A stretch of 64,000 bases of DNA from Candidatus Peribacteria bacterium. Its GTDB lineage: Bacteria; Patescibacteriota; Gracilibacteria; Peribacterales; Peribacteraceae. The translations under genes were made by a program, and so were the position numbers. The notes under the pieces are model-generated. The model was not told the origin of the DNA, did no database searches, and saw only the letters and a list, made by a program, of their open reading frames with translations. This document shows, piece after piece, positions 15,352 to 63,629 of the stretch. The stretch lies in the NCBI GenBank assembly GCA_023245865.1, contig JAHFJN010000001.1, forward strand, positions 550,722 to 614,721, in the 5' to 3' direction. Each line of letters starts with the position of its first letter. The first letter of the stretch is position 1.

Positions 15352-15455
15352 AGGGGAGAGTATACCTCATTCCAACCATCAACTCCCCCTCCCTCTTCAC
15401 GACGCAGCCAGCCCCGCTCAATTACAGTATACTAGTATACTGTACATGAGGAAAA
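15352..15455 (-). promoter_or_regulatory. Conserved upstream block with a 22-bp palindrome (copy 1)
   Basis: A -10-like TATACT (15364-15359, minus strand) sits 7 bases before the paralog 1 ATG. Further upstream, 15423-15444 is a perfect 22-bp palindrome built from TACAGTATACT and its complement, so TATACT occurs on both strands. The same block (GACGCAGCC, the palindrome, then ATGAGGAAAA) recurs at 20113-20220 and 23609-23715. It may be an operator or a pair of opposed promoters. Confidence 0.6.
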
Positions 15456-15471
15456 AATGAGCTTGAGGCAT

Positions 15472-17103: not shown

Positions 17104-17111
17104 GAAGCGAC

Positions 17112-17119
17112 AGTATAGA
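17112..17119. promoter_or_regulatory. Overlapping divergent -10 elements
   Basis: The minus strand reads TATACT at 17117-17112, 8 bases from the paralog 2 ATG. The plus strand reads TATAGA at 17114-17119, 9 bases from the MFS ATG. The two genes start only 25 bases apart, so both transcripts would be almost leaderless and the two promoters would exclude each other. Confidence 0.45.
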
Positions 17120-17128
17120 GTGCTTGGC

Positions 17129-18421
17129 ATGACGCAGGAAGTAGGAAGTCGGCAAAAACGCGATGTGTGGCTATGGGCGCTCTACGATTTTGCAAACTCG
17201 ATCGCGTTCGTGAATTTGTCGCTCTACTTCGGCCTCTGGTTCATCACCGAGCATCATGGATCCGACGCGTGGATGAGCGCGTCCGTCGCCATTTCGACGA
17301 TTGCGATCTTGCTGCTCCTCCCGGTCCTCGGGAAAATGTCCGACCATGCACGCAGACGCATGCCATTCCTCGCGGTCTGCTCACTCCTCTGCATCGCCTC
17401 CTTGATCGCACTCGGCTTCGTCATGGGCATTACCGAAACTCTGACGCTCACAGCAACGATCATCGTTATCGCGCTCTACAGCTTCTTCAACTTCTTCTAC
17501 AATTCCTGCTTCGCATTCTACGATGCCTTCCTGCGGGAATTCACGATGAGCGGACGATCGCTCGAACGTACGTCGGGGTTCGGCATGGGTATGGGCCAAG
17601 TAGGCAATGTCGTCGGACTCGCGCTCGCGATCCCGCTCGCGCAGGGGAAAGTTTCCTTCCTCGGCATGACCGGCAAGCCGCTCATCTTCGTCATCGCAGG
17701 AGTGCTGTTTCTGCTCTGCGCATTGCCGGTCTTCCTCCTCCTCAAAGACCGTCCCGCAGCAACAGATTCCGTGAAGCTGGGTCGCAGCATCCGCGAGACG
17801 TTCCACGATCTGCGTCACATTCGCAAATATCCGGATGTCTTCTGGTACCTCGTCACCTACTGCCTGTTTGCCGATGCGATGCTGACGCTCGCGATGTTCG
17901 TCTCTTCCTATCTGGATATCGTTGCGAAGATGCCCGATACCCAAAAGAGCATCACATTCATCCTCGCGGTGTTTGCCGGCGTCATAGGGTCATTCGTGTG
18001 CCCCCTCTTCGTACGGCTCTGCGCCACGCGCAAGCGGGCGATCTCGCTCTGCATCGCGCTTTGGACCGTCGTCCTTATCCTCTTTGTCACCACCACAACC
18101 CCTTGGCTCTTCACCATCATCGTGGCACTCAACGGCTTTGCGTTCGGTGCACTGTTCTCGCTCTCCCGCGCATTTTTCGCACACCTCGTCCCCGCGGACA
18201 AGCAAGCCGAGATGTTTAGTCTATACGCGCTCTTCGAGCGCACTGCATCGATCTTCGGGCCACTGCTCTGGAGCGCAACCGCCGCGGCATTCGCACCGTT
18301 CGGTCCCGACCGCTACCGTTTCTCCATCATCGCGCTTGCCATCCTCGTCCTCATCAGCTTCTTTACGATGCAGAAGGTGAAGGAACCGACGCTTCCCTCT
18401 CCCTTTGAGGGAGAGGGTTAG
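17129..18421 (+). CDS. MFS transporter, UMF1/Atg22-like family
   Basis: The 430-aa protein has 12 predicted membrane helices. The N-terminus KRDVWLWALYDFANSIAFVN is the hallmark of the UMF1/Atg22-like branch of the major facilitator superfamily, whose substrates are mostly unknown. ATG 17129 is used because the frame upstream reads through paralog 2. The last residues, PTLPSPFEGEG, and the stop codon come from a dispersed CCCTCTCCC-type repeat, so a repeat appears to have replaced the original C-terminus. The gene sits alone on the plus strand within the Cys-rich array. Confidence 0.85.
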   Translation: MTQEVGSRQKRDVWLWALYDFANSIAFVNLSLYFGLWFITEHHGSDAWMSASVAISTIAILLLLPVLGKMSDHARRRMPFLAVCSLLCIASLIALGFVMGITETLTLTATIIVIALYSFFNFFYNSCFAFYDAFLREFTMSGRSLERTSGFGMGMGQVGNVVGLALAIPLAQGKVSFLGMTGKPLIFVIAGVLFLLCALPVFLLLKDRPAATDSVKLGRSIRETFHDLRHIRKYPDVFWYLVTYCLFADAMLTLAMFVSSYLDIVAKMPDTQKSITFILAVFAGVIGSFVCPLFVRLCATRKRAISLCIALWTVVLILFVTTTTPWLFTIIVALNGFAFGALFSLSRAFFAHLVPADKQAEMFSLYALFERTASIFGPLLWSATAAAFAPFGPDRYRFSIIALAILVLISFFTMQKVKEPTLPSPFEGEG

Positions 18422-18432
18422 GGTGAGGGGCA
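18394..18432 (+). repeat. Dispersed palindromic repeat, CCCTCTCCC family
   Basis: CCCTCTCCCTTTGAGGGAGAGGGTTAGG-like text: an inverted CTCCC/GGGAG pair followed by GGTGAGGGG. It encodes the MFS C-terminus and separates it from the convergent paralog 3 stop at 18433. Relatives lie at 35099, 39409 and 42996. Confidence 0.7.
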
Positions 18433-20112
18433 TTAGTAAACCTCTGCCAGGTAACACTCCTCGCAATACACAATCTCCGGCCTCTCGGGCGCATAGTTTG
18501 ATTGAATAGTCTTGCCGCAATAATTGCATTGTCGTTCCCACAGGCGATACGGATTTTTTCGACGCAATCTGTCTGCACTGCGTTCATCAGGATGCAGGTG
18601 AGGGAGGGGAAGGCCCATCGATCGATAGAAGGCTAATTCCTGTTTCACGAAGTTGAATGGTCTTCCGGTTTTCTGGCAGATCACCGGCCTCAGGAGAACG
18701 TCATCGTTTGTCTGCTCGATGGTGCTGGGCAATTGATCGACCGTGATGCTGCGTGGAGGAAGTTCCGTTTCATCGTCGTTGCGCCATTGCCATGCTTGTG
18801 CGATGGCGTCTTCGCGTGACAATGGGAAATATTCCTGCGCAAGAGATTCATTGTAAGCGAATTGAGAAACAAAAGGCGGGAAGTATTCGCCCCACTCTCC
18901 CGCTTTCTGCATGGCTGCGATGATCAATTGCACGGTCTTCGGATAGTCCTCGGGTGTGTATTGTGTGTTAAGGATGCAGTGCTGCTGATGTTTTAGTCCC
19001 ACGCATCCGAAGCAGTTCTTACAGTTTTTACAGTCGATGGAGTAGTACGTGTTATTGCAATCCCAACACAAATAGTTGCCCATGCAGTACTGACCCATGG
19101 AGCAACACATCTCCAGGGACCACTGCACTCCCGTCGGGGATCCGAAATTGGCATCGTATGCACACAAACCCTTTGGCATGAATGCTACATATCGACAGTG
19201 TTCAGAATCCGACATATCAAAACAGGAGCAACAGTCTTTGCAGTTGGTCTGCATGTCGCCGGAGCAATCTTCACAGGCAAACAAATGTGAGGCGCGATGC
19301 GGTTTGTCCCGCTTGAATTCCTGGAATTGGTCCGTGAGCGCGCGGATCCGTTCGACTGTCAGACCCCCCAGAAGTTCTCCTTTGCGTTTCTCGTACGTTT
19401 CTCGATCGAGTTTTTCATTGAATATGCAGTATTCCTGCTGCTGCAGGCCAAGGCACATAATGCAGTTTTTGCATCCGATACAATCTTCCACCAGAAAACA
19501 GTCACTGCAGTTTTGGCAGTAGGAAAAATACGCGCAATGGTAACATCGTGAGGCTGCCACCCCTTCATAACAGCGTTCAGAGGAGAAAATAGACAAGCAA
19601 TCGACACAATCTTTGCACGTAATGACAAATTTCCCGTACATGCAATCTTCCGCATGACTGACGCCGAATACCAGATAACTGTTTTTCACATTCAACGAGT
19701 AATTCGTGTACGCACTGTTTTCGACGTTTGTCGTATTGAGTGACGGGTGCGGCACTTCCCGGTTGAGTGAATGCACTTGCTCCATGAAAGAGCGGCTTAC
19801 ATCGAATGTTCTGCCGTACGTTTTCCCATCCCATTGGTCGCTCCACCATTCATCCTGATCGTAGATAACGTAAGGCTTCTCGGTTGCAACTGTTGAAATA
19901 ATCGGCTTGCCTGAAAGATCGCTTTTCCGATGATAGAGGTTGCGCTCGTTTCGAAACAGCAATCGCCGGATCAGGCGGCAGATGGGACAGAGCGTCGGTG
20001 CGGGAATGGGATATTTTTCTCCGCCGAACTCCGGCGAGATGCTTTCGTAAAAGGCAAGATCTTCATCCGTGATCACGAAGGATTCCTGACACTGTGCACA
20101 CGTTCGCTGCAT
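18433..20112 (-). CDS. Large Cys-rich multi-CxxC protein, paralog 3
   Basis: 559 aa. N-terminal ribbon CAQCQESFVITDEDLAFYES...CPICRLIRR. The Cys-dense centre includes CYHCAYFSYCQNCSDCF and CKDCCSCFDMSDSEHC. The repeated block reads CFGCVGLKHQQHCILNTQYT, and the GEWGEYFPPF segment and C-terminal ribbon CNYCGKT...YCEECYLAEVY are complete. It begins ATGCAGCG with TATACT 7 bases upstream, like paralogs 1, 4 and 5. Cytosolic and soluble; function unknown. Paired upstream with palindrome copy 2. Confidence 0.7.
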   Translation of the reverse strand: MQRTCAQCQESFVITDEDLAFYESISPEFGGEKYPIPAPTLCPICRLIRRLLFRNERNLYHRKSDLSGKPIISTVATEKPYVIYDQDEWWSDQWDGKTYGRTFDVSRSFMEQVHSLNREVPHPSLNTTNVENSAYTNYSLNVKNSYLVFGVSHAEDCMYGKFVITCKDCVDCLSIFSSERCYEGVAASRCYHCAYFSYCQNCSDCFLVEDCIGCKNCIMCLGLQQQEYCIFNEKLDRETYEKRKGELLGGLTVERIRALTDQFQEFKRDKPHRASHLFACEDCSGDMQTNCKDCCSCFDMSDSEHCRYVAFMPKGLCAYDANFGSPTGVQWSLEMCCSMGQYCMGNYLCWDCNNTYYSIDCKNCKNCFGCVGLKHQQHCILNTQYTPEDYPKTVQLIIAAMQKAGEWGEYFPPFVSQFAYNESLAQEYFPLSREDAIAQAWQWRNDDETELPPRSITVDQLPSTIEQTNDDVLLRPVICQKTGRPFNFVKQELAFYRSMGLPLPHLHPDERSADRLRRKNPYRLWERQCNYCGKTIQSNYAPERPEIVYCEECYLAEVY

Positions 20113-20220
20113 AGGAAGCAGTATACCTCATTACAACCACCAACTCCTCCTCTCCTTTGCGACGCAGCCAGCCCCACGTAATTACAATATACTAGTATAC
20201 TGTATATGAGGAAAAAGTGA
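20113..20220 (-). promoter_or_regulatory. Conserved upstream block with palindrome (copy 2)
   Basis: TATACT at 20125-20120 (minus) is 7 bases before the paralog 3 ATG. The palindrome at 20183-20204 differs from the perfect form by one base (ACAATATAC instead of ACAGTATAC). The surrounding text matches copies 1 and 3, which implies duplication of gene plus upstream region. Confidence 0.6.
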
Positions 20221-20225
20221 GGCAA

Positions 20226-21917
20226 TCAGTAAACAGTCGCAAGGTAGCATTCCTCGCAGTACACAATCTCCGGCCTTTCGGGACTGTAGCTTGTTTGAAT
20301 TGCCTTGCCACATTTCATACACGGGCGCTCCCAGAATTTCCGGGGATTGCGACGCAGGAAACGATCTTTATGCCGCTGAATCCAGTTGCGCCTTGGGATT
20401 GGGAGCCTCTGCTGACGATAGAATTTCAGTTCCTGCGCGATGATCTTGAACGGCTTGCCCGTGACTTCGCACACTATCGCCCATTGCAGGATATCATCGG
20501 GCACATCATCGATGTTGTCCGGCACTTGATCTGCTCTGATCGTACGGTCAGCCACGGATGGCTGCTCCTGCATATCATCCCATTTCCAACCCTTCGCAAT
20601 CGCCCGCTCCCGCGTCAGCAGATAGTACTGTTGAGCGCTCGTTTTGTTATATCCAAACGGTGAATGGGCCACGGGAAACAGTTCACCCCACTCCCCCGAC
20701 TTTTTCATATGCGCGATGATTTTCGGAACCAGCTGCTCGTACTCCTCCTTCGTATACTGCTTATTGAGAATACAATATTGTTTATGATGCATGTTGGCAC
20801 AGCCGAAGCAAAACTTGCAGGACTGCACGCGCCAGCAATATGTGACATCGTTGCAACTGACGTGCACATTGTGGGAGAAAAGTGCATGGTAGGTATCGTT
20901 GCCGGCAATCGAGCATTCGTAGGACTCCTGAAGATTGAGGCCGTACTGATAAATGTCATAGTCATTCTTGGCTCCCGTGACAACCTGATAGAGAAATTTA
21001 CCGTCTTCTACGTCTTCACAATCAAAACTGCTGTGCGTGTTTTTGCAATTCGCCAGATGATCGCCGGAACAATTCTCCACATTATACGTCTGCAATTGGC
21101 GGAATGTGTGAAGTAATTCCAGAGCTTTCAGGCGTGGGCGCTGTGCTTCATACTGGACATGAGACCCCAGATCGATCGCATCGATCGTCGCTTCGTATTC
21201 TTCCTTTGTGAGCTGTTTGTTTTCGAAAAAATATTCTTTGTTGCGTAGTCCCACGCACAGAAAACAATTCTTACATCCGATACAATCTCGTAAAAATGCC
21301 CCGGTATTGCAGTTGCGGCAATCCTGGCAACTCTTGAGATCATAGCAGCCATGGACATCCACACAGTCATAGCATAACTCACATTGCAGGTTGTAGAACC
21401 CATCCGCACACGAGCGATTGCGTTTAAAGCCATACCCGTAGTAGCAATCTTCGCAGAAGTCCGCATGCATGATCAGGTAACAGTTCTTGGCAAACCCCGC
21501 ATAGTGAATGTAATCGGAATTCACATTGGTACCCTCACTGAGTAAATTCTGCACGGGGCATGCCAAGCGCATTTCTTGGAACTGATCAAAAAAAGACCTA
21601 CTGAAATCCATGCCCCTGCCAAAGTCGCACGGATCCCATCTATCCCCCTGCCAGCATTCCCGACAGTAGATCGTGCATGGATTTTCCGGCGGCTGCTCGG
21701 TGATGATACGTTTCGCGCAGAGCACGCATATCGTTTGATAGAAAAACTGCTCGTTACAATACGAAAGCCTTCTCTGCTGCCGGCAATCGGGGCAGTGAGT
21801 CGGTGGTGGAATCTCATATTTCTTCCCCGCAATCACCGGCGAAAGCTGATCGAGGAACGCAAGATCGTCGTTGGTGATCTCGAAGCTTGCCTGACATTGG
21901 GTGCACATTCGCTGCAT
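20226..21917 (-). CDS. Large Cys-rich multi-CxxC protein, paralog 4
   Basis: 563 aa from ATG 21917 (MQRMCTQC). N-terminal ribbon CTQCQASFEITNDDLAFLDQ...CPDCRQQRR, then the Cys-dense centre (CELCYDCVDVHGCYDLKSC). The doubled CxxC...EYFFENKQLTKEEYE / YCILNKQYTKEEYE blocks, GEWGELFPVAHSPFGYN and the terminal CMKCGKA...YCEECYLATVY complete the plan. Only 5 bases separate it from the stop of paralog 5, yet it still carries its own TATACT 7 bases before ATG, inside that gap and the end of paralog 5. Confidence 0.7.
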   Translation of the reverse strand: MQRMCTQCQASFEITNDDLAFLDQLSPVIAGKKYEIPPPTHCPDCRQQRRLSYCNEQFFYQTICVLCAKRIITEQPPENPCTIYCRECWQGDRWDPCDFGRGMDFSRSFFDQFQEMRLACPVQNLLSEGTNVNSDYIHYAGFAKNCYLIMHADFCEDCYYGYGFKRNRSCADGFYNLQCELCYDCVDVHGCYDLKSCQDCRNCNTGAFLRDCIGCKNCFLCVGLRNKEYFFENKQLTKEEYEATIDAIDLGSHVQYEAQRPRLKALELLHTFRQLQTYNVENCSGDHLANCKNTHSSFDCEDVEDGKFLYQVVTGAKNDYDIYQYGLNLQESYECSIAGNDTYHALFSHNVHVSCNDVTYCWRVQSCKFCFGCANMHHKQYCILNKQYTKEEYEQLVPKIIAHMKKSGEWGELFPVAHSPFGYNKTSAQQYYLLTRERAIAKGWKWDDMQEQPSVADRTIRADQVPDNIDDVPDDILQWAIVCEVTGKPFKIIAQELKFYRQQRLPIPRRNWIQRHKDRFLRRNPRKFWERPCMKCGKAIQTSYSPERPEIVYCEECYLATVY

Positions 21918-21922
21918 AGCAA

Positions 21923-23608
21923 TCAGTATACCTCTTTCAAATAACACTCCTCACAGTACACCACTTCCGGCCTCTCGGGGCTGTATGTCGTTTGAATTGC
22001 GTTCCCACACTTTGCACACGATCGATCCCACAGATGTCGGGGATTTCGCATCGCGAGTCTCTTCCGATGGCGCTCATCGGGATGCAGTCGCGGGATCGGG
22101 AGCTGCATCCTGCGATAGAACTCCAGTTCTTTTCTGATGATGCGAAAGGGTTTGCCCGTGACCCTGCACCGAATCGCCCACTCTGTGATGTCATCGGGAA
22201 TCTCTTCGATGCTGTCAGGCAACTGCATAGCCTCGATGATTTTTGCAACCTGCGGCGAGAGCGTTTCGTGTTCGCTCCACTTCCATCCGCGGACCACGAG
22301 ATCTCCCTTTGTGCCGGGAAAGTATTCCAGTGCGACCGTTTCGTTGTACCCAAAGGGACTGATGCTTGATGGCAGAAATTTCCCCCACGAATTGTCTGCT
22401 TGCATGCTCCCGATAATCGCAGAGGCTAACGCCTCATACTCCTCTTTCGTGTACTGTTTATTCAAAATGCAGTACTCATGTTTGCGCAGTCCCACGCACC
22501 CAAAACAATTCTTGCAATCCGTGCATTGGAAGCAGTACATGCTGTCACTACACCGTTCACATTGAACCGAAAAGAGAACATTGAACGAATAGCCAACCCC
22601 CGTGCACTGATAGAGAAGCTCGGAATCATATCCATACCCATACAAATCTTGAGAGGACTTGCAGCGCTTGCTGCAATCCAAGTATGCACAATCCTCAGCT
22701 TTGAATACCTCAAAGCAGAGTCTGCAGTTTTTGGTATTGAAGAGAAAGTCTCCTGTGCTGTTTTCAGTATTCACCGACTGTCGCTCGCGATGGATCGCCT
22801 TCGTGACAAGCTCTGCGAAACGCTCGCGAAGCCCTTCATGCTTCGAAAAACTTCCCGCCCCGAGCAAGCTCGCCGACTGGCGGTCATACTCCTCTTTGCT
22901 CACCTTCTCGTTGAAAATGCAGTACGAGGCATGCGTGAGATTCGTGCAGCCGATGCAATGATCGCAGCCGACACAGTTAAAGAGGAACGTGGAGTCCTGG
23001 CACTGGCTACAATTTTGGCAGTGAGTAGCGTTATAGCAATTGCTCGCATTGATGCACTCGTAACACCATTCGCAATTCTGGCACGTACTCATATCCATGC
23101 AATCTTTGCTCTCAATGAGACCCTTGCTGTAGTAGCAATCCTGCAGAAGTCCACTATTGAACACGAGGTAGCAATCTTTGCACGGCCCCGCCCAGTTCGT
23201 GTAGTCACTGTTTTCCGGTCTGCCCGTGATGAAGAGCCCGCGATGAGCAACAGCCTTCAAGAGTGCATCAAACTGCTCCCAAAATAATGTGCCGTCCTCA
23301 TACGCGCGCCCGAACTGCATCGCATCCCACCTATCACTTGGCCAGCACTGTTCGCAAAGAACGTTGTAGGGAAGATCCGCATGGTACATACACACAATCG
23401 TTTTCTTGCAGAGCGCACAGGGGCGGTTATATAAACTGCGCTCATTGCGCCACACCATGCGCCGCACCGACCGACAATTGGGACACATCTCGGGCGCGGG
23501 AATCGGATACTTTTTGCCCGCGATCACGGGAGACACGGCATCATAAAATGCAACATCTTCAACGGTAATATCGTAGCTCGCCTCGCATTGGGAACACATA
23601 CGCTGCAT
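21923..23608 (-). CDS. Large Cys-rich multi-CxxC protein, paralog 5
   Basis: 561 aa from ATG 23608 (MQRMCSQC). N-terminal ribbon CSQCEASYDITVEDVAFYDA...CPNCRSVRR, centre CMDMSTCQNCEWCYECINASN, block CFGCVGLRKHEYCILNKQYT, and terminal CAKCGNA...YCEECYLKEVY. The longer frame upstream crosses the regulatory block and is rejected. It is first in the minus-strand run 5-4-3, so it may head a transcript. Function unknown; multiple structural zinc sites are likely. Confidence 0.7.
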   Translation of the reverse strand: MQRMCSQCEASYDITVEDVAFYDAVSPVIAGKKYPIPAPEMCPNCRSVRRMVWRNERSLYNRPCALCKKTIVCMYHADLPYNVLCEQCWPSDRWDAMQFGRAYEDGTLFWEQFDALLKAVAHRGLFITGRPENSDYTNWAGPCKDCYLVFNSGLLQDCYYSKGLIESKDCMDMSTCQNCEWCYECINASNCYNATHCQNCSQCQDSTFLFNCVGCDHCIGCTNLTHASYCIFNEKVSKEEYDRQSASLLGAGSFSKHEGLRERFAELVTKAIHRERQSVNTENSTGDFLFNTKNCRLCFEVFKAEDCAYLDCSKRCKSSQDLYGYGYDSELLYQCTGVGYSFNVLFSVQCERCSDSMYCFQCTDCKNCFGCVGLRKHEYCILNKQYTKEEYEALASAIIGSMQADNSWGKFLPSSISPFGYNETVALEYFPGTKGDLVVRGWKWSEHETLSPQVAKIIEAMQLPDSIEEIPDDITEWAIRCRVTGKPFRIIRKELEFYRRMQLPIPRLHPDERHRKRLAMRNPRHLWDRSCAKCGNAIQTTYSPERPEVVYCEECYLKEVY

Positions 23609-23715
23609 AGGAAGCAGTATACCTCTTTTCAAACCACCAACTCCACCTCCACCCCCCCCCTCGCGACGCAGCCGACCGCTCAATTACAGTATACTAGTAT
23701 ACTGTATATGAGGAA
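23609..23715. promoter_or_regulatory. Conserved upstream block with palindrome (copy 3)
   Basis: TATACT at 23621-23616 (minus) is 7 bases before the paralog 5 ATG. The perfect 22-bp palindrome lies at 23685-23706 and faces the SDR gene on the plus strand, about 60 bases from that gene's likely start. Confidence 0.6.
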
Positions 23716-47278: not shown

Positions 47279-47353
47279 GGCCCCATCGTCTAACGGTTAG
47301 GACGCAGGATTTTCATTCCTGCAATCCGGGTTCGATTCCCGGTGGGGCTGCCA
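47279..47353 (+). tRNA. tRNA-Glu (anticodon TTC), CCA encoded
   Basis: GGCCCCA pairs with TGGGGCT (one G-T), T8 follows, the D arm is CGTCTAACGGTTAGGACG-like, the anticodon arm is CAGGA-TTTTCAT-TCCTG with TTC, and the T arm is CCGGG-TTCGATT-CCCGG. Discriminator G73 and CCA close it. It is also the integration site of the element to the right. Confidence 0.95.
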
Positions 47354-48940
47354 TAGTGAAAAATCGACATCAGAAATACTATGTTTTGGCTTAGGAATCA
47401 CGAAGGATCGAAGTTCGATCCGCTCTGATTTCTGGTTCATCGCTTCCAAGCCTTCTTTGATCTTCAAGAACGGAAATCTGGCTTCACACTGCACAATCCC
47501 GTCTTTCATTGTCCAGTTCGAGCCAATTGCCGTGAGGATAACTTTCTGAGTATCCACGCTGCCTATATCGAAGAACTTCAAGGCGTTGAAAGAGAATTCA
47601 AAGGTTTTGATGGTCCTATCTATTGCAGTATCTACATTCAATTCATTGTCATCGAGAAGCCTTTTGGCATGGTCTCGTTCTTTAGTAAGCGAGTTCTTTT
47701 GCACTTTAAACTCATCTTCACTAATTACTGAGCGGTCCATGTTATCAACTGCCACATAGAGTTTTACAAGATTCTGAATGGCTGCCATAGCATTGTCGTA
47801 CTTGCGTCGGAACTCTGCCAACTGCTTCTGCTGCCCTTTCTTATCCATCTCATGCATCCGCTCCATTTTATCCTTCAACCAAACTAGCAATCGCTCTGAG
47901 ATCGTTATGGCTTCGATATACTTCCTGAGTTGTGGAGTCATCTCATCTTTATTGAGCTGTACGGTCTGGGAACACGGACCCTTCTTCTTTGTGCATCGAT
48001 AATAGAGATGCACCCGTACATCCCCGTTCTTTTGTTTTTTTCGTTGAACATCACAGGTAATCATTGAATCGCATTCAGCGCAGTGAATCAGACCAGTGAA
48101 GGGAGAATTATGCTTTCGATTATTCGGCCTACCGTCCCTCCCTAGAATCATTTGCGCCCTCTCATACTCGGCATAAGTAATCATTGCGGGATGTTTCCCT
48201 TTGTAGAATTCTTTCTTCCACCAGAAATAACCCGCACAGAAAGGCGAGGCGAAAATTTTATAAAGACTACTGAGTGTGACTGGATGCTCTGGGCGCTTCT
48301 TAGTGGCACGGGCGGTCATGCCCCAGTCTTCCACCATGATGTACCAGATTTGTGGGACGGTGTAGCCACCCGTCAGCAGGAGCCTCCATGCCTTCTGCAT
48401 GTTTTCATACCGAAGATCATCTTCAGCGATAAAGCATCGACCTCGCTCACCTGGATTGATGTTGCTATAGCCAAGAGGAGCTTTCCCAGGGAACTGTCCA
48501 ATCTTGCACTTCGTGGTCATGCCTCTAGTCACATCTACACCCAACTTTTCCGATTGGTACTTTGATTGAGAGAGGGCAAAACTGAGCATCATTTTGCCCT
48601 CTGGCGAATTACTGAAAAAATAGGAACCGAACTGCAAATCTTTTATGACCTTGCGATCTAGTGCGTAAATCACCTCAGCTGCATCAATTGGGTTGCGGCT
48701 TAGACGATCAGGATGCCAAACGATTATCCCATCTGCTTCACCAGCCTCTATGCGTCTAAGCATGTCTTTGAACTTGGGGCGGTTGTAGGGCTTGAAGGCG
48801 CTACCGTCCTCCTCAATTTCCTCTACGATCTCTAGGTGCTGGAACTTCAACAGCAGCTCTTGGCGTTGCGATTGGATCGAGAGCGCCTGTTTCTCTTCGT
48901 CGGTGCTTCTACGGGCATACAAGAAGTATTTATAGGCCAT
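47297..48940 (-). CDS. Large serine recombinase of the integrated element
   Basis: 547 aa. N-terminal resolvase domain with catalytic Ser in YARRSTDEEK, and VWHPDRLSRNP; then a recombinase domain, a zinc ribbon (CAECDSMITC...CTKKKGPC) and a coiled coil. The final residues QPHRESNPDCRNENPAS and the stop codon are encoded by the antisense strand of the tRNA-Glu gene, overlapping it by 57 bases. The enzyme is therefore in place at the attachment site, as expected for a tRNA-targeting integrase. Confidence 0.93.
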   Translation of the reverse strand: MAYKYFLYARRSTDEEKQALSIQSQRQELLLKFQHLEIVEEIEEDGSAFKPYNRPKFKDMLRRIEAGEADGIIVWHPDRLSRNPIDAAEVIYALDRKVIKDLQFGSYFFSNSPEGKMMLSFALSQSKYQSEKLGVDVTRGMTTKCKIGQFPGKAPLGYSNINPGERGRCFIAEDDLRYENMQKAWRLLLTGGYTVPQIWYIMVEDWGMTARATKKRPEHPVTLSSLYKIFASPFCAGYFWWKKEFYKGKHPAMITYAEYERAQMILGRDGRPNNRKHNSPFTGLIHCAECDSMITCDVQRKKQKNGDVRVHLYYRCTKKKGPCSQTVQLNKDEMTPQLRKYIEAITISERLLVWLKDKMERMHEMDKKGQQKQLAEFRRKYDNAMAAIQNLVKLYVAVDNMDRSVISEDEFKVQKNSLTKERDHAKRLLDDNELNVDTAIDRTIKTFEFSFNALKFFDIGSVDTQKVILTAIGSNWTMKDGIVQCEARFPFLKIKEGLEAMNQKSERIELRSFVIPKPKHSISDVDFSLWQPHRESNPDCRNENPAS

Positions 48941-56008: not shown

Positions 56009-57055
56009 TTATTCACTTAGCCAAAACCAATACTCATTCTTTAGCCTATCGCTTAAACGATAGGAATTGGCATGAGAAAGGACTCCAAGATAGGAATGGA
56101 GAGATTGTTCAACTGACTCCTTGCTACCCGTGCCATTCCTACAGGCTATCGCTCTCAGGTGTAGCTTTCTGAACATTCGTTGTTTTGTGCGAGTGCGAAC
56201 AACCCTGCAATGAGGCAAAAGAACGTAGCCGAGGAAATCTATTCCCTGACGATACCTCCGCATTGAGATTTTCCGAGGATGGAGATCAAGGCACAGATAC
56301 TCCTGAAGAAACGCCCTTATAGGCTGGATGAGGCCACGTAAATACTCAGGATCATTCGAGACTATGGCAAAATCATCGGTATAGCGGACATAGTTCTGAA
56401 CGCGCAGAGTGTGCTTTATGAATTGATCCAGCTCGTTCAGATAGACGTTGGCAAAAAGTTGGGAAGTAAGATTGCCAATAGGAACTCCCTTGGTTGCAGG
56501 AGTAAATCGAGCCGATTTGAAGCTGCCCACAATATCTTTGAGGAGCCACATTGCATCATCATCTTTCATGCGTTTTCCAAGGATGTTCAGCAAAATATTG
56601 TGGTCAACGCTATCAAAGAACTTATGGATGTCGCACTGTAGAACAAAGCAGCGTTCATGACCATTTCGGCTGATCTTACTCAGCATTTTCTCCAAGGAAT
56701 CCACGGCTTTATGAGTCCCTTTGCCATCACGACAAGAAAATGAATGTGAAATAAACGAAGGTTCAAAGATAGGATTCAAAATGGAGAAAACTGCATGATG
56801 CAGAATGCGGTCACGGACTGTGGCTTTGTGAATGTGCCGCTGCTTGGGGTCGCAGATGAAGAAGGCAGAGTAAGGGCTGTGCGTGTATGTCCGTGACTCC
56901 AACTCCCTGTGCAGCGCGAAGGTATTTTCTTCCAGCTTCCACTCAAATTCCTGTACGTCAGTCCGAGACCCCTTGCCTCTCTTAAAACCCTCCCAAGATG
57001 AGAATAAGTGCTCTAGCGCAATGATGCGGTTGAATATATCCTTGTGAACTTTCAT
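56009..57055 (-). CDS. DGR reverse transcriptase
   Basis: 348 aa from ATG 57055. DGR-type RT marks: VPIGNLTSQLFANVYLNELD in place of the group II PQGxxxSP motif; RYTDDFAIV (catalytic YxDD); QCDIHKFFDSVDHNILL; IDFLGYVLL. It copies the template RNA into cDNA with errors at adenines. The start is only 10 bases from the divergent avd gene. Confidence 0.93.
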   Translation of the reverse strand: MKVHKDIFNRIIALEHLFSSWEGFKRGKGSRTDVQEFEWKLEENTFALHRELESRTYTHSPYSAFFICDPKQRHIHKATVRDRILHHAVFSILNPIFEPSFISHSFSCRDGKGTHKAVDSLEKMLSKISRNGHERCFVLQCDIHKFFDSVDHNILLNILGKRMKDDDAMWLLKDIVGSFKSARFTPATKGVPIGNLTSQLFANVYLNELDQFIKHTLRVQNYVRYTDDFAIVSNDPEYLRGLIQPIRAFLQEYLCLDLHPRKISMRRYRQGIDFLGYVLLPHCRVVRTRTKQRMFRKLHLRAIACRNGTGSKESVEQSLHSYLGVLSHANSYRLSDRLKNEYWFWLSE

Positions 57056-57065
57056 ACACTTTCTT

Positions 57066-57416
57066 ATGGAGGAACTGGATATTCCCATCTTCAAACGGGC
57101 TTACGAACTCTATAAGACCATGCACGGTTACAGAGGAACCGTGCCTAAAGCAGATCGGCATACCCTCTGGCAGCGCATTGAAAGTCTTACTTTGGAGGCG
57201 TTGGAAGGTATTCTGCTGGCCAGTCAGCTTTCCAAAACCCAAAAGCTCCAGCCGCTGGAGCAAGTGAGCGTGAAGCTCAATATGCTCCGTGTCCTTCTGC
57301 GCCTTGCCAAGGATATCAAGGCCATTGATCTGAAGAAGTACGCCACATTGGAGATGATCGTTGATGAGATGGGCAGGATGCTTGGCGGCTGGATCAAGTC
57401 TGTGAAGGAACGATAG
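57066..57416 (+). CDS. avd: DGR accessory variability determinant (Avd)
   Basis: 116 aa forming four helices: IPIFKRAYELYKTMHGYRG, KADRHTLWQRIESLTLEALE, MLRVLLRLAKDIKAIDLKKY and MIVDEMGRMLGGWIKSV match the Avd four-helix bundle. Avd forms a pentamer that binds template RNA and the RT. Here it runs opposite to RT, TR and targets, which is unusual. Confidence 0.88.
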   Translation: MEELDIPIFKRAYELYKTMHGYRGTVPKADRHTLWQRIESLTLEALEGILLASQLSKTQKLQPLEQVSVKLNMLRVLLRLAKDIKAIDLKKYATLEMIVDEMGRMLGGWIKSVKER

Positions 57417-57437
57417 TAGGTTTGGCTGAGAGGGAAG

Positions 57438-57551
57438 TTCCGCGAGAGGGAGAGGCCGAGATCGTCATTCGAGTTGTCAGGCCTATCGTTGTTGACGTTC
57501 GCGCCGTCTGAATCGCAATTGCCAAGATAAACGAGGTTGCCATCCGAGGAG
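57438..57551 (-). repeat. DGR template repeat (TR)
   Basis: Aligns without gaps to 57960-58073 (VR1) and 59043-59156 (VR2). On the minus strand it reads like AAC/AAT-rich coding text (SSDGNLVYLGNCDSDGANV...). Of 26 template adenines, 18 differ in VR1 and 17 in VR2; none of the other 88 positions differs. A GC-rich, nearly A-free end (57440-57460) is the expected initiation site for mutagenic homing. An open frame passes through it, but it is not a gene. Confidence 0.95.
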
Positions 57552-57552
57552 T

Positions 57553-57949
57553 GATTGCCCTTTCCCGTCCGTATCACTGGGAATCGAGGTTTACGCCCAG
57601 CCGTACAAAAAAACACTGGGTTATATCCTCTCTCCCCTGAATTTAATGTGGTAGCAACCATCCCGTGGAACGGGGTGATACCTACGCTAGGAAAGAGCAA
57701 GAAGTTCCCTCTCAGTCTTCGCCCATGCGCTACCGTTCTCCGTAGAGAAGCGATATTCTGATGGGTTCCACCTACGCAGAGCTTCAGTGGTAACGAAGCG
57801 AGGGTGACAGCGAGCAGGAACCGTAATCCCTGCTACATGAGCGGACACCACAAACACAGTACATTGCTGAATAGCAATATTGCCAATATAAAAAATTTGC
57901 AGCCGAGAATTCAAGGATTCAATAGGCTCAAAACTTCAAAGCTCAAGGC
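57553..57949. other. 397-base gap between TR and target 1
   Basis: No convincing gene. Short frames exist on both strands. At 57704-57719, GAAGTTCCCTCTCAG is an inverted near-copy of the TR right-edge flank at 57427-57441. Bases 57912-57953, full of TTCAA/GCTCAA, lie just after the target 1 stop and resemble 58990-59036 after target 2. It may hold structures needed for template RNA or homing. Confidence 0.4.
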
Positions 57950-58948
57950 TCAGAGGAACTTCCGCGAGAGGGAGAGGCCGAGATCGCCATCCGAGACGCC
58001 AGGCCTACCGCCGCCGACGCCCGCGCCGCCCGAATCGCAATAGCCAAGAAAAACGAGGCCGCCATCCGAGGAGAGTGTGGGAGTCCAAGTGTAATTATCT
58101 TCCAAGATACGTTCGCCCTTATTTCGGTAGCTCTGGAGGAAATCATACAGAGCTTCAGCAGGAGTATGCCGCATGAGACGATTGAGCTTCAGCACAGAGA
58201 GCTGCTTAGCCGCTTCTTCCCAATTACTATCCATGAGTTTTTCAATGTTCTTCTTCAATTTCTTGAACTCATCAACGGCCACCTGATAGGGAGGAGGCAA
58301 TGGCTTTCCTGCAAACAGCGTGTCCGTCACATAATCCGCAAGCAGTTGGGTCTGTTCAAGATAGTTCTTTTCAGTTGAGTCTGGCAGTACCGTGTCCGAT
58401 GTGAATGCCCAGCAGAGATCAGGAGTTTCTTTCGTGAAGAAATCCTCTTTCTCGTACCAGTCGGTATCGTACAGAACCTTATCCCCATCCTTTTCAAAGG
58501 TATCAGATAGAAGCTCGTTCATCTTCTGCATGGTAAGAGGTTTGCCATCTGGGGCTTTATTCACGCGCAGCCGCAACGTGTGTCCCAACTTCGCATGACG
58601 TTCCAATTCTTCCTTGGAAGGCAAGGTAGGGATATCTGCTTCCCTCAGTTCAATGCCGAATACTTTCTTCACTTCCTCAATTCCAAAGAAGCGGCCATTC
58701 ATCATCTCTTTGGCTTTCTCGATGGATGCACTTGGCTTTGCGGATGGCACAGTAAGGACGCTGCTCAGTTTTTGCTGGAGAGTGCCAAGGAGCCTATGTA
58801 ATTCCTTCTTCTCTGCTGCTGGAGCATGGGGCAGCCTGGAAAGATTGCGTACCTCTTCAAGAATCGGATCAGCAACTTGCCGCACGTCCGCGCTGCCCTG
58901 GTAGCCAGGGCTGCTTTGTACTCGATGGATGAAGGATTCGTTTTCCAT
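57950..58948 (-). CDS. DGR target protein 1 with variable C-terminus
   Basis: 332 aa. Residues 87-332 are paralogous to the C-terminal half of target 2: RFFGIEEVKKVFGIELR, RHAKLGHTLRLRVNKAPDGK, LYDTDWYEKEDFFTKETPDL, LLADYVTDTLF. The last about 40 residues are the VR: SSDGGLVFLGYCDSGGAGVG...LSLSRKF. This looks like a C-type-lectin-like DGR fold. No AAA+ domain. It may act as a separate recognition subunit. Confidence 0.9.
   Translation of the reverse strand: MENESFIHRVQSSPGYQGSADVRQVADPILEEVRNLSRLPHAPAAEKKELHRLLGTLQQKLSSVLTVPSAKPSASIEKAKEMMNGRFFGIEEVKKVFGIELREADIPTLPSKEELERHAKLGHTLRLRVNKAPDGKPLTMQKMNELLSDTFEKDGDKVLYDTDWYEKEDFFTKETPDLCWAFTSDTVLPDSTEKNYLEQTQLLADYVTDTLFAGKPLPPPYQVAVDEFKKLKKNIEKLMDSNWEEAAKQLSVLKLNRLMRHTPAEALYDFLQSYRNKGERILEDNYTWTPTLSSDGGLVFLGYCDSGGAGVGGGRPGVSDGDLGLSLSRKFL
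57960..58073 (-). repeat. DGR variable repeat 1 (VR1)
   Basis: 114 bases; differs from TR only at 18 template adenine positions. Several changes are A to G, giving Gly-rich residues (GAGVGGGRPG). Confidence 0.95.
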
Positions 58949-59032
58949 GATGCAAAAGGTGATTTTTCGTCAGTAGCGGAGGATTTCAAGGAATAAGTAT
59001 TCAAAAAGTTCAAGGCTTCAAGAGAGCAAAGT

Positions 59033-61057
59033 TCAGGGGAACTCCCGCGAGAGGGAGAGGCCGAGAACGCCAAACGAGAAGTCAGGCCCATCGTAGAAGA
59101 CGCGCGCGCCGTCTGAATCGCAACGGCCAAGAAAAACGAGGTAGCCATCCGAGGAGACTTCATTCGTCCATGTCCATTTGTCCTTTAGAGTGCGCTTTTT
59201 ATCACTTGTGGCGCGGAGCGTTTGCACGAAATCAAACAGCGCAGCCGCTGGCTTGTGGCGTAGCGTGTTGAGTTTCAACTTTGACAGTTTCTGTGCGGCA
59301 GCTTTCCAGTCGCTGCTCATCAGGCGTGTAATTTCGGGCTTTGCAGTGTCAAATTCTCGCAGTGCCTCCTCATACTCCGCTGGCACTTTCTCCCCCTTGA
59401 AGAGAGTGTTGCGAACGTAGTCAGCGAGGAATTCCGTCTGCTGCAAGTAGTTCTTTCCAGTAGAGCCAGAGAGAACCGTATCCGTGGTAAAGACCCAAGC
59501 GGTTTTCGGAACATCATTCGTGAAGAATGATTCTGTTTTGTACCAGTCTCTTGGGTACAACACTTTTCCATCTTTATCCTTCGCAAATTTCTCCTCCATC
59601 AGTTCTGCCATGCGTTTCATCGTGAGAGGTGTGCCATCGGCTGCTTTGCTTACGCGCAGCCGCAGCGTGTGGCCGAGTTTGGCATGACGCTCAATCTCCT
59701 TTCGTGGAGGCATTGCAGGGACTTCAGAAGGCTTGAGTTTGATGCCGAATGATTTTTCCAATTCCGTGAGACCGAAGAATTGCCCTGCTCCCATCAATTC
59801 TCTGGCCTCATGCTCCTCTGCCGAGGTCGCGGGTACGGCTTCTGCCGTGGGAACAGCACCTTCTAGGAGATCAAGAATCTGCTGCTTGCGTTCCGCAATT
59901 TCCGCATCAATATCACGTCTTCCCGTTTCCAATCCTTTGCGCTTGGAAGGGGTAGCGGGTGCGGTGTAGGAAACATGGCTCACAAGCTCCTCCAGCTTTT
60001 GCCTGTCCTCATCGGCAAGCAGCTTATTGACGTAGTAGTACCTGAGAGCTTTCTGAAAGGTCTCAGTGATATCGCCATTGTAGAAACGCGATACGAAGTC
60101 ACGGACGCGCCGTGGCTCCTCACGGTCATCGTAAGCGAAAGGCTGAGGCTGGCCGCTAGCAATGGAACGCTGCTGCAAGAGACCATTGGCAGCCGCATGG
60201 AATTCCATGTACTTCTCAGCGATCAGCTCAATGCCAGGAATCTCCGCCATTTGCTCATCGGTTAGCGCATAGTCTCTGGGTATGACGAGCGCATTGCTTT
60301 GCACATGCTCCTCTTTCTTGCCCACTCCAAAGAGTGCTTTTGTGGAAAACTTGAACGCTTCTGGGGGCAATCTGTCAGGCAATTTTTGATACACCCATCG
60401 GCGCAATTGAGCAGGGTCAAGCGCGGGACGCTGGAGATAGCCCTTACCAGGAGGGTTCATGAAAGCTGCAACCTTCGTACATTCTTTGTTTGTGGAAATA
60501 TCTTCTGAGGCATCCTCAGACAACACCACTTTGCCGCCTCGTTCCAATGCATCCAGTACCTCATGGAGACGGATAAGAACGTTAGGCGCGGCGGCATTAA
60601 ACTCATCAAGGATGATGACTTTTATCTTTCCTTTCTCCTGTCGTAGTCCGCTTGTTACCCTGCCATCTGCAAAGACATATTCAGGGTCTGTAGGACCCGT
60701 TTTATTGGCATTAGGAATGTACTTGCCCATAAGATCTTCCACGTCCGTAGCACCATTGAGGTTTACATAGTGGACTTCCCATCCAAGTTCAGATGCCATC
60801 TTGCGAACGGCAGTCGTTTTTCCAATGCTCGTGCCAGCCTCAATCAGAATCGGCTCTCCCATGAGGAAGCTGATAGCGAGCTTCTGCTGCAACTGGAGCA
60901 CGGAGAAACGGTCATTGATGTATTCAGCGTATTTCCCTTTTTCAGGAATGAGCGGACTCTCGCGGTTTTCCGCTTTTGGCAGTCGCACTCCCGCATAGGA
61001 GACAGCATCATCTGCGTCTTCTATAGGTGCCGAGAATGTATCGGGTTGAGTGCTCAC
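59033..61057 (-). CDS. DGR target protein 2: MoxR-type AAA+ ATPase with variable lectin-like C-terminus
   Basis: 674 aa. AAA+ domain about 50-330: Walker A-like EAGTSIGKTT (Lys80), Walker B VIILDEFNAA (Asp151, Glu152), sensor AAFMNPPG. Linker about 360-425. Residues 427-674 match target 1, and the last about 40 are VR2 (SSDGYLVFLGRCDSDGARVF...LSLSREF). A MoxR ATPase carrying a hypermutated domain is rare. With the vWA gene upstream it resembles MoxR-vWA chaperone pairs. 3 bases separate it from the 139-aa gene. Confidence 0.92.
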   Translation of the reverse strand: MSTQPDTFSAPIEDADDAVSYAGVRLPKAENRESPLIPEKGKYAEYINDRFSVLQLQQKLAISFLMGEPILIEAGTSIGKTTAVRKMASELGWEVHYVNLNGATDVEDLMGKYIPNANKTGPTDPEYVFADGRVTSGLRQEKGKIKVIILDEFNAAAPNVLIRLHEVLDALERGGKVVLSEDASEDISTNKECTKVAAFMNPPGKGYLQRPALDPAQLRRWVYQKLPDRLPPEAFKFSTKALFGVGKKEEHVQSNALVIPRDYALTDEQMAEIPGIELIAEKYMEFHAAANGLLQQRSIASGQPQPFAYDDREEPRRVRDFVSRFYNGDITETFQKALRYYYVNKLLADEDRQKLEELVSHVSYTAPATPSKRKGLETGRRDIDAEIAERKQQILDLLEGAVPTAEAVPATSAEEHEARELMGAGQFFGLTELEKSFGIKLKPSEVPAMPPRKEIERHAKLGHTLRLRVSKAADGTPLTMKRMAELMEEKFAKDKDGKVLYPRDWYKTESFFTNDVPKTAWVFTTDTVLSGSTGKNYLQQTEFLADYVRNTLFKGEKVPAEYEEALREFDTAKPEITRLMSSDWKAAAQKLSKLKLNTLRHKPAAALFDFVQTLRATSDKKRTLKDKWTWTNEVSSDGYLVFLGRCDSDGARVFYDGPDFSFGVLGLSLSREFP
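59043..59156 (-). repeat. DGR variable repeat 2 (VR2)
   Basis: 114 bases; differs from TR at 17 template adenines and nowhere else. Its substitutions are different from those in VR1, so the two repeats have diverged independently. Confidence 0.95.
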
Positions 61058-61060
61058 GAA

Positions 61061-61480
61061 TTAAGATTGGTAAACGATGCCTGTACTGGCAAGAAAATCC
61101 ATGCCGTTCTTTTGCGCCGAAACCAGCGTGTCTTTCGTCAGGAGGAGTACGAGCGTAACACCCTCGTAGCGGGGCGTAGAGACCTGTGGTTGCATCGTAG
61201 AGCGGTTCCACATCTCCACCTGGCCTGTCGGATATTGCACTGAAAAATCATAGTAATCTTTCGCGTGGGAAGCATCAGCGAGAATGCTGTATGCCTTACC
61301 TGGGTGATCGGAGGCAATGGAGAATTCCAAAGGAGTATTCACAGAAGCGAACCCTAGAACATCTAGCTCCCTTTTGAGAGATGCCAGTTCCTCCTCATCT
61401 TTCGCAATCACAAGCGACACCTCCTTCTGCCCTAGGGCATAGGTGATGAAGTCGGTGATAGCGGATGTTGACATGCTCAT
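61061..61480 (-). CDS. Conserved hypothetical protein between vWA and AAA+ genes
   Basis: 139 aa. Soluble alpha/beta protein with a helical N-terminus (STSAITDFITYALGQKEVSL) and beta-rich rest (YEGVTLVLLLTKDTLVSAQK). No family recognised. Spacing of 3 bases to the AAA+ gene and 19 to the vWA gene suggests it is part of the same complex, perhaps as an adaptor. Confidence 0.6.
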   Translation of the reverse strand: MSMSTSAITDFITYALGQKEVSLVIAKDEEELASLKRELDVLGFASVNTPLEFSIASDHPGKAYSILADASHAKDYYDFSVQYPTGQVEMWNRSTMQPQVSTPRYEGVTLVLLLTKDTLVSAQKNGMDFLASTGIVYQS

Positions 61481-61499
61481 ATTATATTACATTATAACA

Positions 61500-63629
61500 C
61501 TAAATACCTCCCTGATCAATGACACTTCGCAGAAGCGTAGCCAGTTTCTTGGATAGCTCCTTTGCCTCAATATCGGCAATGCTATGAGGATAATAGGAGG
61601 AAACGTGTCCTGTTCCCAGTCCTATACCCAGTCCAATAAGATACTGATCGGTATTTTCAAGAATACTACGCACCTCCATTGAGAGTTCATATTTGCCACG
61701 AGGATGCATGGGCGATTCCTCAGGCTTTCCATCAGAAAGGACAACGAGGAACTTTTCTGATTCCTTCTGTCTCGCAAGCCGCTCAGATGCTTGTCTGAGC
61801 GCCCAACCGTCATCGTTATACTGTGCCTTACCCGTATCGCTGCAATCAGATACCTCTTTGAGCATTCCTCCCATCTGTTCTTGCTTCTGTGTGCTCAGCT
61901 CCTCTCCGTAGGACTGGTACGGGTAGATACGATCATTAAATCCCAGTATCTCCATCTTGATTGAGAGCCGATTCAGCACCTCAGCAAGGGCGACAACCGC
62001 CTTAAAGGTCTCTTGAATTTTTCTGCCATTATTCATGGAACCAGAGAGATCTACGAGAAGCGTAATAGCGTAATCCTCCTCTGTAGGAAGCTCTCTCCGT
62101 TCCCATGCCTTGCTCTGCACGGCAGGGACTCCTTTCGCTCTTTCCTGCATCCGCTTGGTCATGTTGATACGCTTGCCTGTGGGGTTCCCTTTAAGCCATT
62201 TGCGAGCGCGGCGTTCCGTGAATATCTCGCGCAGATCATTCTCTAGTTCATCAATGATGGGCAGCACTTCTCTGCGTGTTGCTTCGTACACATTGGCATC
62301 TTTTCCCAGAAGCTGTTCCACTTGTCTCTTGAACTGTTCCACTTCGGGATGTGGAACGGTTTTCTCAAGATCCTCACCTTCAGAGGAGTCCACATCTTTC
62401 TTCACTTCCTTTTTCTGTGCAGCCTCAGGTGTTTGCGAGAGCTTTCCTTGAATGGCATCAGCAATCTCATCCGCAAATTCTTTCAGCGCAGCCTGGGCTT
62501 TTTCTTCCAATTCCCTGCGTTCTTCCTCAGGTAACTCCTCAATCGCTTTACGGATTTTTTCTTTCAGGCTCTCAGGCAAGCTATCCAAATCCACAATGCC
62601 GACTGGCTTGCCATCGTCGGCTGTAGCTTCAAGAGCGGCCTGTGGCGTTCCTTGTGTTTCCTGCCCGCCCTCTTGCCCCTTCTGAGCCAGTGCTTTGGCA
62701 ATGGCCTGAGCCACGGCTTGCTGGATAGCTTCCCCCAAGGCTTGCCGTTCCTCATCGGTGAGGCCATCTATGAACGATGAATCCTCCTTCTGCTGCATGT
62801 CCTTCAAAAACTCCTGCATCTCCTCATCTTTTTTGTCTTTCTCAATGAGGGTCTGAAAGAGCGGCCAAACCTCATCACGGTTGATCTCGTAGCTCTGCTT
62901 CGAGTACTCGCTAATAACCGCTTCACTTGTGTCTGCTTCTGCCCTGTTTGGATATCTCCACCATGAATCCCTCGCAGCTTCTAATGTCTTTGCTACGACA
63001 TCACGCACCTCTTCAGGAAGATCAGGTGTAAGTTCCGAAGGCTGCTCCTGCACCTCCCTAAACCATTGCTTGATGTACTCAAATCCAGCGAGCATGAAAC
63101 GGGGTCGGAAACCTATTTTCTCTTTGGATTCCTCCTTTGCTTTTTTCTCCTCGTCCATATCTGAGGCATACGCAGCTGCCATCTGCTTTCCAAAGAGAGG
63201 GTAGGCTTCAGCAACGAAGTTATTGATGCGTGGATCTTCAATGGAATTCATCATGAATGGGAATCCAGGTTGCTTCCATGTCTCCAATGGAATGTGATCG
63301 GTGCGTGAAATTCTCCTATGGCCGCCTTCATGCGAAATCACAAATCGCAGATAATCCATCGGTTTCTCCAGCAAATCCTTGGGATCGATCCGCACGATGT
63401 TTTGATCAAAATCCCAATGCCATCCTGCCCCAGGTTCATTCAACTCCACAGGCATGGCGAAGTCCTTTCCGATGAACGATGCGAGAGAGGAAAGAATTTG
63501 CCGTTTCTTCAAAATCTCCGCTTGCTGAGGACCATCAAATGACTTGAGAATTTCCTGTTCGCGGACCGCACGAAATCTACCGTTTTCCTCTCTATCTTCA
63601 TCAGGCCGTCCCCAGTCTGGACGTTTCAT
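61500..63629 (-). CDS. vWA-domain protein with HEGGH zincin-like motif
   Basis: 709 aa. N-terminal region with VISHEGGHRRI (residues 97-107, HExxH) and SIEDPRINNF (Glu131), the pattern of gluzincin-like domains fused to vWA proteins. The middle is Glu/Gln/Lys-rich and helical (about 275-430). The C-terminal vWA domain has MIDAS DLSGS (Asp527, Ser529, Ser531) and VVLSDGKP. It resembles CobT-type partners of MoxR/CobS AAA+ ATPases. It heads the operon before the 139-aa gene and target 2. Confidence 0.88.
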   Translation of the reverse strand: MKRPDWGRPDEDREENGRFRAVREQEILKSFDGPQQAEILKKRQILSSLASFIGKDFAMPVELNEPGAGWHWDFDQNIVRIDPKDLLEKPMDYLRFVISHEGGHRRISRTDHIPLETWKQPGFPFMMNSIEDPRINNFVAEAYPLFGKQMAAAYASDMDEEKKAKEESKEKIGFRPRFMLAGFEYIKQWFREVQEQPSELTPDLPEEVRDVVAKTLEAARDSWWRYPNRAEADTSEAVISEYSKQSYEINRDEVWPLFQTLIEKDKKDEEMQEFLKDMQQKEDSSFIDGLTDEERQALGEAIQQAVAQAIAKALAQKGQEGGQETQGTPQAALEATADDGKPVGIVDLDSLPESLKEKIRKAIEELPEEERRELEEKAQAALKEFADEIADAIQGKLSQTPEAAQKKEVKKDVDSSEGEDLEKTVPHPEVEQFKRQVEQLLGKDANVYEATRREVLPIIDELENDLREIFTERRARKWLKGNPTGKRINMTKRMQERAKGVPAVQSKAWERRELPTEEDYAITLLVDLSGSMNNGRKIQETFKAVVALAEVLNRLSIKMEILGFNDRIYPYQSYGEELSTQKQEQMGGMLKEVSDCSDTGKAQYNDDGWALRQASERLARQKESEKFLVVLSDGKPEESPMHPRGKYELSMEVRSILENTDQYLIGLGIGLGTGHVSSYYPHSIADIEAKELSKKLATLLRSVIDQGGI

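What the first reader, a model, noticed from the sequence alone, without database searches (positions are those of the whole stretch)
56009..61057. Complete diversity-generating retroelement with two variable repeats and strict adenine mutagenesis
RT, Avd, one TR and two VRs are all present. Gap-free alignment of 114 bases gives 18 TR/VR1 and 17 TR/VR2 differences, every one at a template adenine on the coding strand, and none at the other 88 positions. The two VRs differ from each other, so mutagenic homing has occurred independently. This is direct sequence evidence of an active or recently active DGR.
Basis: partly seen in the sequence, partly recalled or inferred. Interest (0 to 1): 0.95.

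Follow-up and report, generated by a model that had tools for sequence, protein, structure and literature searches.

The report
Self-mutating gene cassette in a Peribacterium
This is a complete protein-diversifying retroelement (a DGR) in a tiny Candidatus Peribacteria-type bacterium that rewrites the ends of two neighbouring genes from one template; such elements are already known to be common in these bacteria, but its reversed helper gene and a short repeat that marks only the rewritten copies do not appear in the DGR papers I could search.

Summary
TR, VR1 and VR2 align without gaps over 114 bases, with 18 and 17 differences, all at the 26 template adenines and none at the other 88 positions. 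The first differing non-adenine is a C-to-G change just past that alignment, shared by both VRs (GGAACTTCC in TR, GGAAGTTCC in VR1, GGGAGTTCC in VR2), as expected of an IMH*/IMH marker. RT, Avd and both targets are intact. This is a true DGR in a Ca. Peribacteria-type genome. The kind is known: a CPR-restricted DGR lineage is described, and AAA-lectin fusions are reported as its commonest targets. (1) avd lies on the opposite strand, start codon to start codon with RT (10 bp apart); 75 of the 80 nearest named RT loci share this. (2) An array of TTGA-type direct repeats, period 7-9 nt, follows VRs but not TRs, where BPP-1 has a hairpin. (3) Synonymous sites of the two targets are saturated upstream of the VR but 97% identical inside it, so one template keeps overwriting both genes. 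Read-level activity could not be tested. Interest is moderate: a new variant of a known kind.

The parts
56009..57055 (-). DGR reverse transcriptase, 348 aa from the conserved start MKVHK; motifs IGNLTSQ (193) and YTDD (225)
   Evidence: PF00078 1.9e-24; PHROG 1423 reverse transcriptase 1.7e-110; profile of 7 relatives best matches the solved RT 8ub7_A, whose partner chain is named Avd, 1.3e-56 against 9e-31 for group II RT; motifs
57066..57416 (+). Avd, 116 aa, on the strand OPPOSITE to RT, TR and targets; 10 bp between the two start codons
   Evidence: bAvd 1e-17, NF033474 6.8e-23, PHROG 3206 1.3e-22; orientation shared by relatives
57433..57551 (-). Template repeat (TR), 26 adenines
57433..57441 (-). 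GGAACTTCC at the TR 3' end (IMH*-like); VR copies read GGAAGTTCC / GGGAGTTCC
   Evidence: same C/G difference in the other family loci
57955..58073 (-). VR1, 18 of 26 adenines changed (15 A>G, 3 A>T)
57911..57946 (-). Direct-repeat array downstream of VR1, five TTGA units 7-9 nt apart
57950..58948 (-). Target B, 332 aa, stand-alone variable protein without AAA domain
   Evidence: AlphaFold model mean pLDDT 86
59038..59156 (-). VR2, 17 of 26 adenines changed (10 A>T, 5 A>G, 2 A>C)
58986..59021 (-). Direct-repeat array downstream of VR2, four TTGA units (spacings 8, 9 and 15)
59033..61057 (-). Target A, 674 aa: AAA+ (AAA_5/CobS-like) ATPase with intact Walker A and B, fused to the variable C-terminal domain
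   Evidence: PF07728 8.1e-10, CobS-like weak match, motifs
61061..61480 (-). 139-aa protein of unknown function between target A and the VWA gene
   Evidence: no family
61500..63629 (-). CobT-like VWA protein, 709 aa, MIDAS DLSGS at 527; likely partner of the AAA+ target
   Evidence: PF11775 4.7e-15, PF00092 1.8e-6; motif; partnership inferred from gene order

Best explanation
A working (or very recently working) diversity-generating retroelement of the CPR lineage. TR RNA is transcribed on the minus strand. The RT with Avd copies it, misreading template adenines, and the cDNA replaces VR1 and VR2. Information transfer stops within 1-2 nt of the C/G marker at the 3' end: VR2 carries a mutated A two bases before it yet keeps the VR base G. 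The targets are an AAA+ ATPase with a variable C-terminal domain and a stand-alone copy of that domain, encoded beside a CobT-like VWA protein; most likely they form a sensor or chaperone-like complex whose ligand-binding face is randomised. avd is expressed from the opposite strand, head-to-head with RT. Shown by sequence: the adenine-only pattern, the architecture, its conservation, and homogenisation by one template. Inferred: VR choice through the TTGA-type repeat array, AAA-VWA partnership, ligand recognition, present-day activity.
For: Adenine-only differences. RT and Avd families, RT closest in PDB to 8ub7_A. Target A against B: third codon positions 28-38% identical upstream, 97% inside the VR; the same trend in five relative loci. 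Same adenine rule in 58 CPR loci. Avd opposite and adjacent in 75 of 80 loci, one change on the RT tree. Repeat array after VR and not after TR. AAA+ and VWA motifs intact.
Against: No reads, so VR polymorphism with a constant TR was not seen. The variable domain has no significant family, PDB sequence or fold match; the best fold hits (EgtB, SenA, FGE) are lectin-fold-like but have E about 0.6 or worse. No strong hairpin follows the VRs, although it matters for BPP-1 homing. avd shows almost no synonymous constraint, so a required structured RNA antisense to avd is not supported outside its ends.
Confidence: 0.9

Rival explanations
1. A fossil DGR: homing happened in the past, the machinery is now silent, and the VRs persist under purifying selection.
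For: Only one genome of this species and no read data. The second DGR in the same genome has a target whose VR lies in another frame than the upstream ORF.
Against: RT, Avd and both targets are open and intact. Not one non-adenine change in 88 positions of two VRs although the flanking synonymous sites are saturated.
Confidence: 0.12
2. TR and VRs are ordinary diverged repeats or gene-conversion tracts, not DGR products.
For: Tandem paralogous genes can exchange sequence by gene conversion.
Against: 35 of 35 differences over 114 bases at template A; RT and Avd adjacent; same rule in 58 loci.
Confidence: 0.01
3. The VR-specific repeat array is not a homing element but a transcription or mRNA-end signal of target genes that happens to be absent after TR.
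For: Stem-loops followed by T runs often come right after the array. Similar 3-unit matches occur at a few other places in the genome, one inside a gene.
Against: No such array after the RT genes of the same cassettes or in random segments; position directly at the VR end in many clades.
Confidence: 0.35
4. TR transcription reads through antisense avd into RT, so TR RNA and RT mRNA are one transcript and avd antisense serves as the structured spacer.
For: Gene order TR - antisense avd - RT on one strand; in BPP-1 the spacer between TR and brt binds the RT-Avd complex (PMC12875486).
Against: No synonymous constraint over most of avd. Most relatives have a bidirectional-terminator-like hairpin between TR and avd, though this locus does not.
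Confidence: 0.3

Closest known systems
CPR-restricted DGR lineage (clade 2 of Roux et al. 2021, PMC8144416; Paul et al. 2017, known here only as cited)
   Same: Host group, cellular not viral, adenine-specific TR/VR pattern; AAA ATPase-lectin fusion reported as the commonest CPR target (PMC10907252 citing Paul et al.)
   Different: The held papers do not mention a reversed avd or the VR repeat array; Paul 2017 and Wu 2018 could not be read, so these may already be described. Clade membership of this RT was not tested against the published tree.
Bordetella phage BPP-1 DGR (mtd-avd-TR-brt)
   Same: RT best matches 8ub7_A, solved with an Avd chain, which I take from memory to be the Bordetella complex; Avd; TR/VR; IMH/IMH* pair; adenine mutagenesis
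   Different: BPP-1 has avd upstream of TR on the same strand and a hairpin/cruciform after VR (PMC3240598, PMC12875486); here avd is opposite and between TR and RT, and VRs are followed by direct repeats, not a strong hairpin
DGR-diversified MoxR-vWA (VMAP ternary) conflict systems (PMC7159879, PMC10907252)
   Same: AAA+ ATPase, VWA protein and DGR-variable domain encoded together
   Different: The variable domain is fused to the AAA+ protein, not to vWA; no VMAP, peptidase, TIR or other effector domain recognised in the neighbouring genes scanned

Membership tests
Diversity-generating retroelement | Reverse transcriptase of the DGR type | tested here: met
   PF00078; PDB best match 8ub7_A, 1.3e-56, ahead of group II and retron RTs; IGNLTSQ and YTDD; PHROG 1423
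Diversity-generating retroelement | TR and VR differing almost only at template adenines | tested here: met
   18/18 and 17/17 over 114 bases
Diversity-generating retroelement | VR at the 3' end of an intact target gene | tested here: met
   VR1 and VR2 end at the stops of two open ORFs
Diversity-generating retroelement | Accessory protein Avd (in many DGRs) | tested here: met
   but on the opposite strand
Diversity-generating retroelement | IMH/IMH* difference at the 3' ends of VR and TR | tested here: met
   C in TR, G in both VRs, same position in the family
Diversity-generating retroelement | Hairpin/cruciform downstream of VR (usual, not universal) | tested here: not met
   Best stems 3-4 bp, p 0.12 and 0.64; a direct-repeat array instead
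Diversity-generating retroelement | C-type-lectin or Ig fold of the variable domain | tested here: inconclusive
   Confident model (pLDDT 86); top fold hits are FGE/EgtB-type lectin folds but not significant
Diversity-generating retroelement | Mutagenic retrohoming observed | not testable with these tools
   needs reads or an assay
VMAP ternary conflict system | MoxR-type AAA+, vWA and VMAP proteins | tested here: not met
   AAA_5 and CobT-like VWA present, no VMAP or effector family found in the genes scanned
CPR DGR clade 2 of Roux et al. | RT falls in that clade | not tested
   Published tree not available; the nearest 80 named RTs are nearly all CPR

The most novel reading that the evidence does not exclude
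CPR DGRs form a mechanistic variant: VRs are recognised through a short direct-repeat array (CTTGA/CTTGG/CTTTG, period 7-9 nt) rather than a hairpin/cruciform, TR is protected from self-overwriting by lacking it, and avd is made from a transcript convergent with TR RNA and divergent from RT, which could let sense and antisense RNAs set the diversification rate.
Probability: 0.35. Interest if true: 0.65.

Novelty: new variant of a known kind. Interest (0 to 1): 0.5.

Why it matters
It shows that a large, conserved group of CPR DGRs is built differently from the Bordetella model on which mechanism and engineering rest: reversed avd and a candidate new target-recognition element. If the array directs homing, it gives a portable tag for directed diversification and a testable answer to how VR is told from TR. 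It also ties hypermutation in ultra-small bacteria to an AAA+/VWA pair.

Tried and rejected
Further VRs elsewhere in the genome: none. Structured RNA in antisense avd: no general synonymous constraint, only codons 2-4 and weakly the last few codons. VR hairpin: no enrichment. Attachment-site duplicate of the tRNA-Glu 3' end: none found. Viral origin: only 3 distant viral loci by RT, all with same-strand avd. Family or PDB sequence match for the variable domain: none. Homology of the 966-aa genes upstream of target A in relatives to the window's VWA protein: no profile match; they share only a transglutaminase-like stretch with another relative's TGase+VWA protein, and their DLTSSM/SDG motifs are VWA-like by eye. 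The array as a general 3' UTR feature: not seen after the RT genes or in random segments.

Full report
Check of the observation. On the minus strand, TR (57551-57433), VR1 (58073-57955) and VR2 (59156-59038) align without gaps. In the first 114 bases TR has 26 A. VR1 differs at 18 and VR2 at 17 positions, all at A; VR1 and VR2 differ from each other at 19, all at TR A. Both VRs then share one C-to-G difference at base 115, inside GGAA(C/G)TTCC. In VR2 the first A of GGAAC has itself become G, so template information reaches to within two bases of that marker, which stays VR-type. This fits IMH/IMH*, and the same C-to-G marker recurs in the other family loci, though not in the second DGR of this genome.

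Components. The RT (348 aa from MKVHK) and Avd are confirmed by several libraries, and a profile of seven family RTs matches the PDB chain 8ub7_A, solved with an Avd chain, far better than group II intron RTs. The window lies at C3:550722-614721 of a 1.1-Mb, nearly complete genome. Named relatives are Ca. Peribacteria and Peregrinibacteria, so a Peribacteria-type host is inferred. The genome has a second DGR at about C3:851-853 kb (L004/L037), RT 63% identical, with its own TR and VR (19 adenine changes, none elsewhere) and avd also reversed.

Targets. Target A is an AAA+ ATPase (AAA_5, CobS-like, Walker motifs intact) with a variable C-terminal domain; target B is that domain alone. A CobT-like VWA protein with an intact MIDAS motif lies upstream. 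In the family, four genomes (G006, G043 with two loci, G030, G037) carry the same pair of targets beside the same DGR; an AAA+ domain was recognised in the two long target A proteins scanned, while a shorter one gave no match. Outside the VR the two targets have third-codon-position identity near random (28-38% in the window), but 97% inside the VR; the five relative loci show the same pattern, with 85-100% in the VR. One template has kept overwriting two old paralogues. This is the best available evidence of sustained homing.

Architecture. avd is on the strand opposite to RT, TR and targets, between TR and RT, with its start codon 10 bp from the RT start. Of the 80 nearest named RT loci, 75 have avd immediately upstream of RT on the opposite strand and none has an adjacent same-strand avd; the three viral loci found have it on the same strand. 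In a survey of one class, both arrangements occur. On an RT tree, 80 opposite and 6 same-strand rows need one change (shuffles average 5.9; support for that branch is 69, so one origin is consistent with the data, not proven). Relatives mostly have a terminator-like hairpin between TR and avd; the window and the second DGR do not. avd synonymous sites are unconstrained except codons 2-4, opposite the region just upstream of the RT start, and weakly the last few codons.

VR-specific array. Just after each VR comes an array of TTGA units: five after VR1 and four after VR2, mostly 7-9 nt apart. Across 66 VRs there are 2.4 TTGA per 100 nt, against 0.57 after TRs and 0.585 background. In other CPR clades the unit reads CTTGG or CTTTG with the same spacing; 49% of CTTK spacings are 7 or 8 nt, against 9% background, and 51 of 57 loci have more units after VR than after TR. 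A motif-free period test is positive in 28 of 57 VR flanks and 0 of 58 TR flanks. Hairpins are not enriched after VRs (6 of 66) but are after TRs (22 of 58). Loci are related, so these counts overstate independence. The array is not unique to DGRs: a few 3-unit matches lie elsewhere in the genome. A role in target choice is inference.

Comparison with what is known. Roux et al. (PMC8144416) describe a CPR-restricted DGR clade and broad activity; PMC10907252 reports, citing Paul et al. 2017, that AAA-lectin fusion is the commonest CPR target. So the kind is known. The held papers on DGR layout do not mention reversed avd or a direct-repeat array in the passages found, but the two most relevant surveys were not held. 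The locus resembles DGR-linked MoxR-vWA systems in parts list, but lacks VMAP and known effectors in the genes scanned, so it is not filed there.

Verdict. Observation confirmed, interpretation supported, interest reduced because CPR DGRs are common. The conserved reversed avd and the VR array make it a new variant of a known kind, with moderate interest.

Noticed in passing
L068 and L070 (relative genome G043, contigs C43 and C35): Two DGR cassettes seem to have swapped templates: both VRs of C35 match the TR of C43 at all non-adenine positions except the 3' marker (and, for one, the last base), and the target-B VR of C43 matches the TR of C35 with one extra difference. This points to homing in trans between loci, if both contigs come from one cell line.
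   Followed up: partly
L004:9770-10533 (genome C3, about 852.8-853.5 kb): In the second DGR the VR lies in another frame than the upstream target ORF; pseudogene, assembly error or frameshifting cannot be told apart.
   Followed up: partly
47279-48940: Serine recombinase gene whose 3' end overlaps tRNA-Glu; G+C drops from 51-54% to mostly 43-50% from here on, suggesting that the DGR sits in an integrated island. No second attachment copy was found.
   Followed up: partly
L003:2870-3787: 305-aa protein that looks by eye like a tyrosine recombinase, just downstream of the window; possibly part of the same island.
   Followed up: no
13681-23683: Five neighbouring minus-strand genes for long cysteine-rich paralogues (about 550-590 aa) of unknown function.
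   Followed up: no
L151:7480-8400 (genome C3, about 700.5-701.4 kb): CTTGAGG and ACACAAG/AAGCTACAAG minirepeats inside an open reading frame, resembling the DGR repeat unit but without a nearby DGR.
   Followed up: partly
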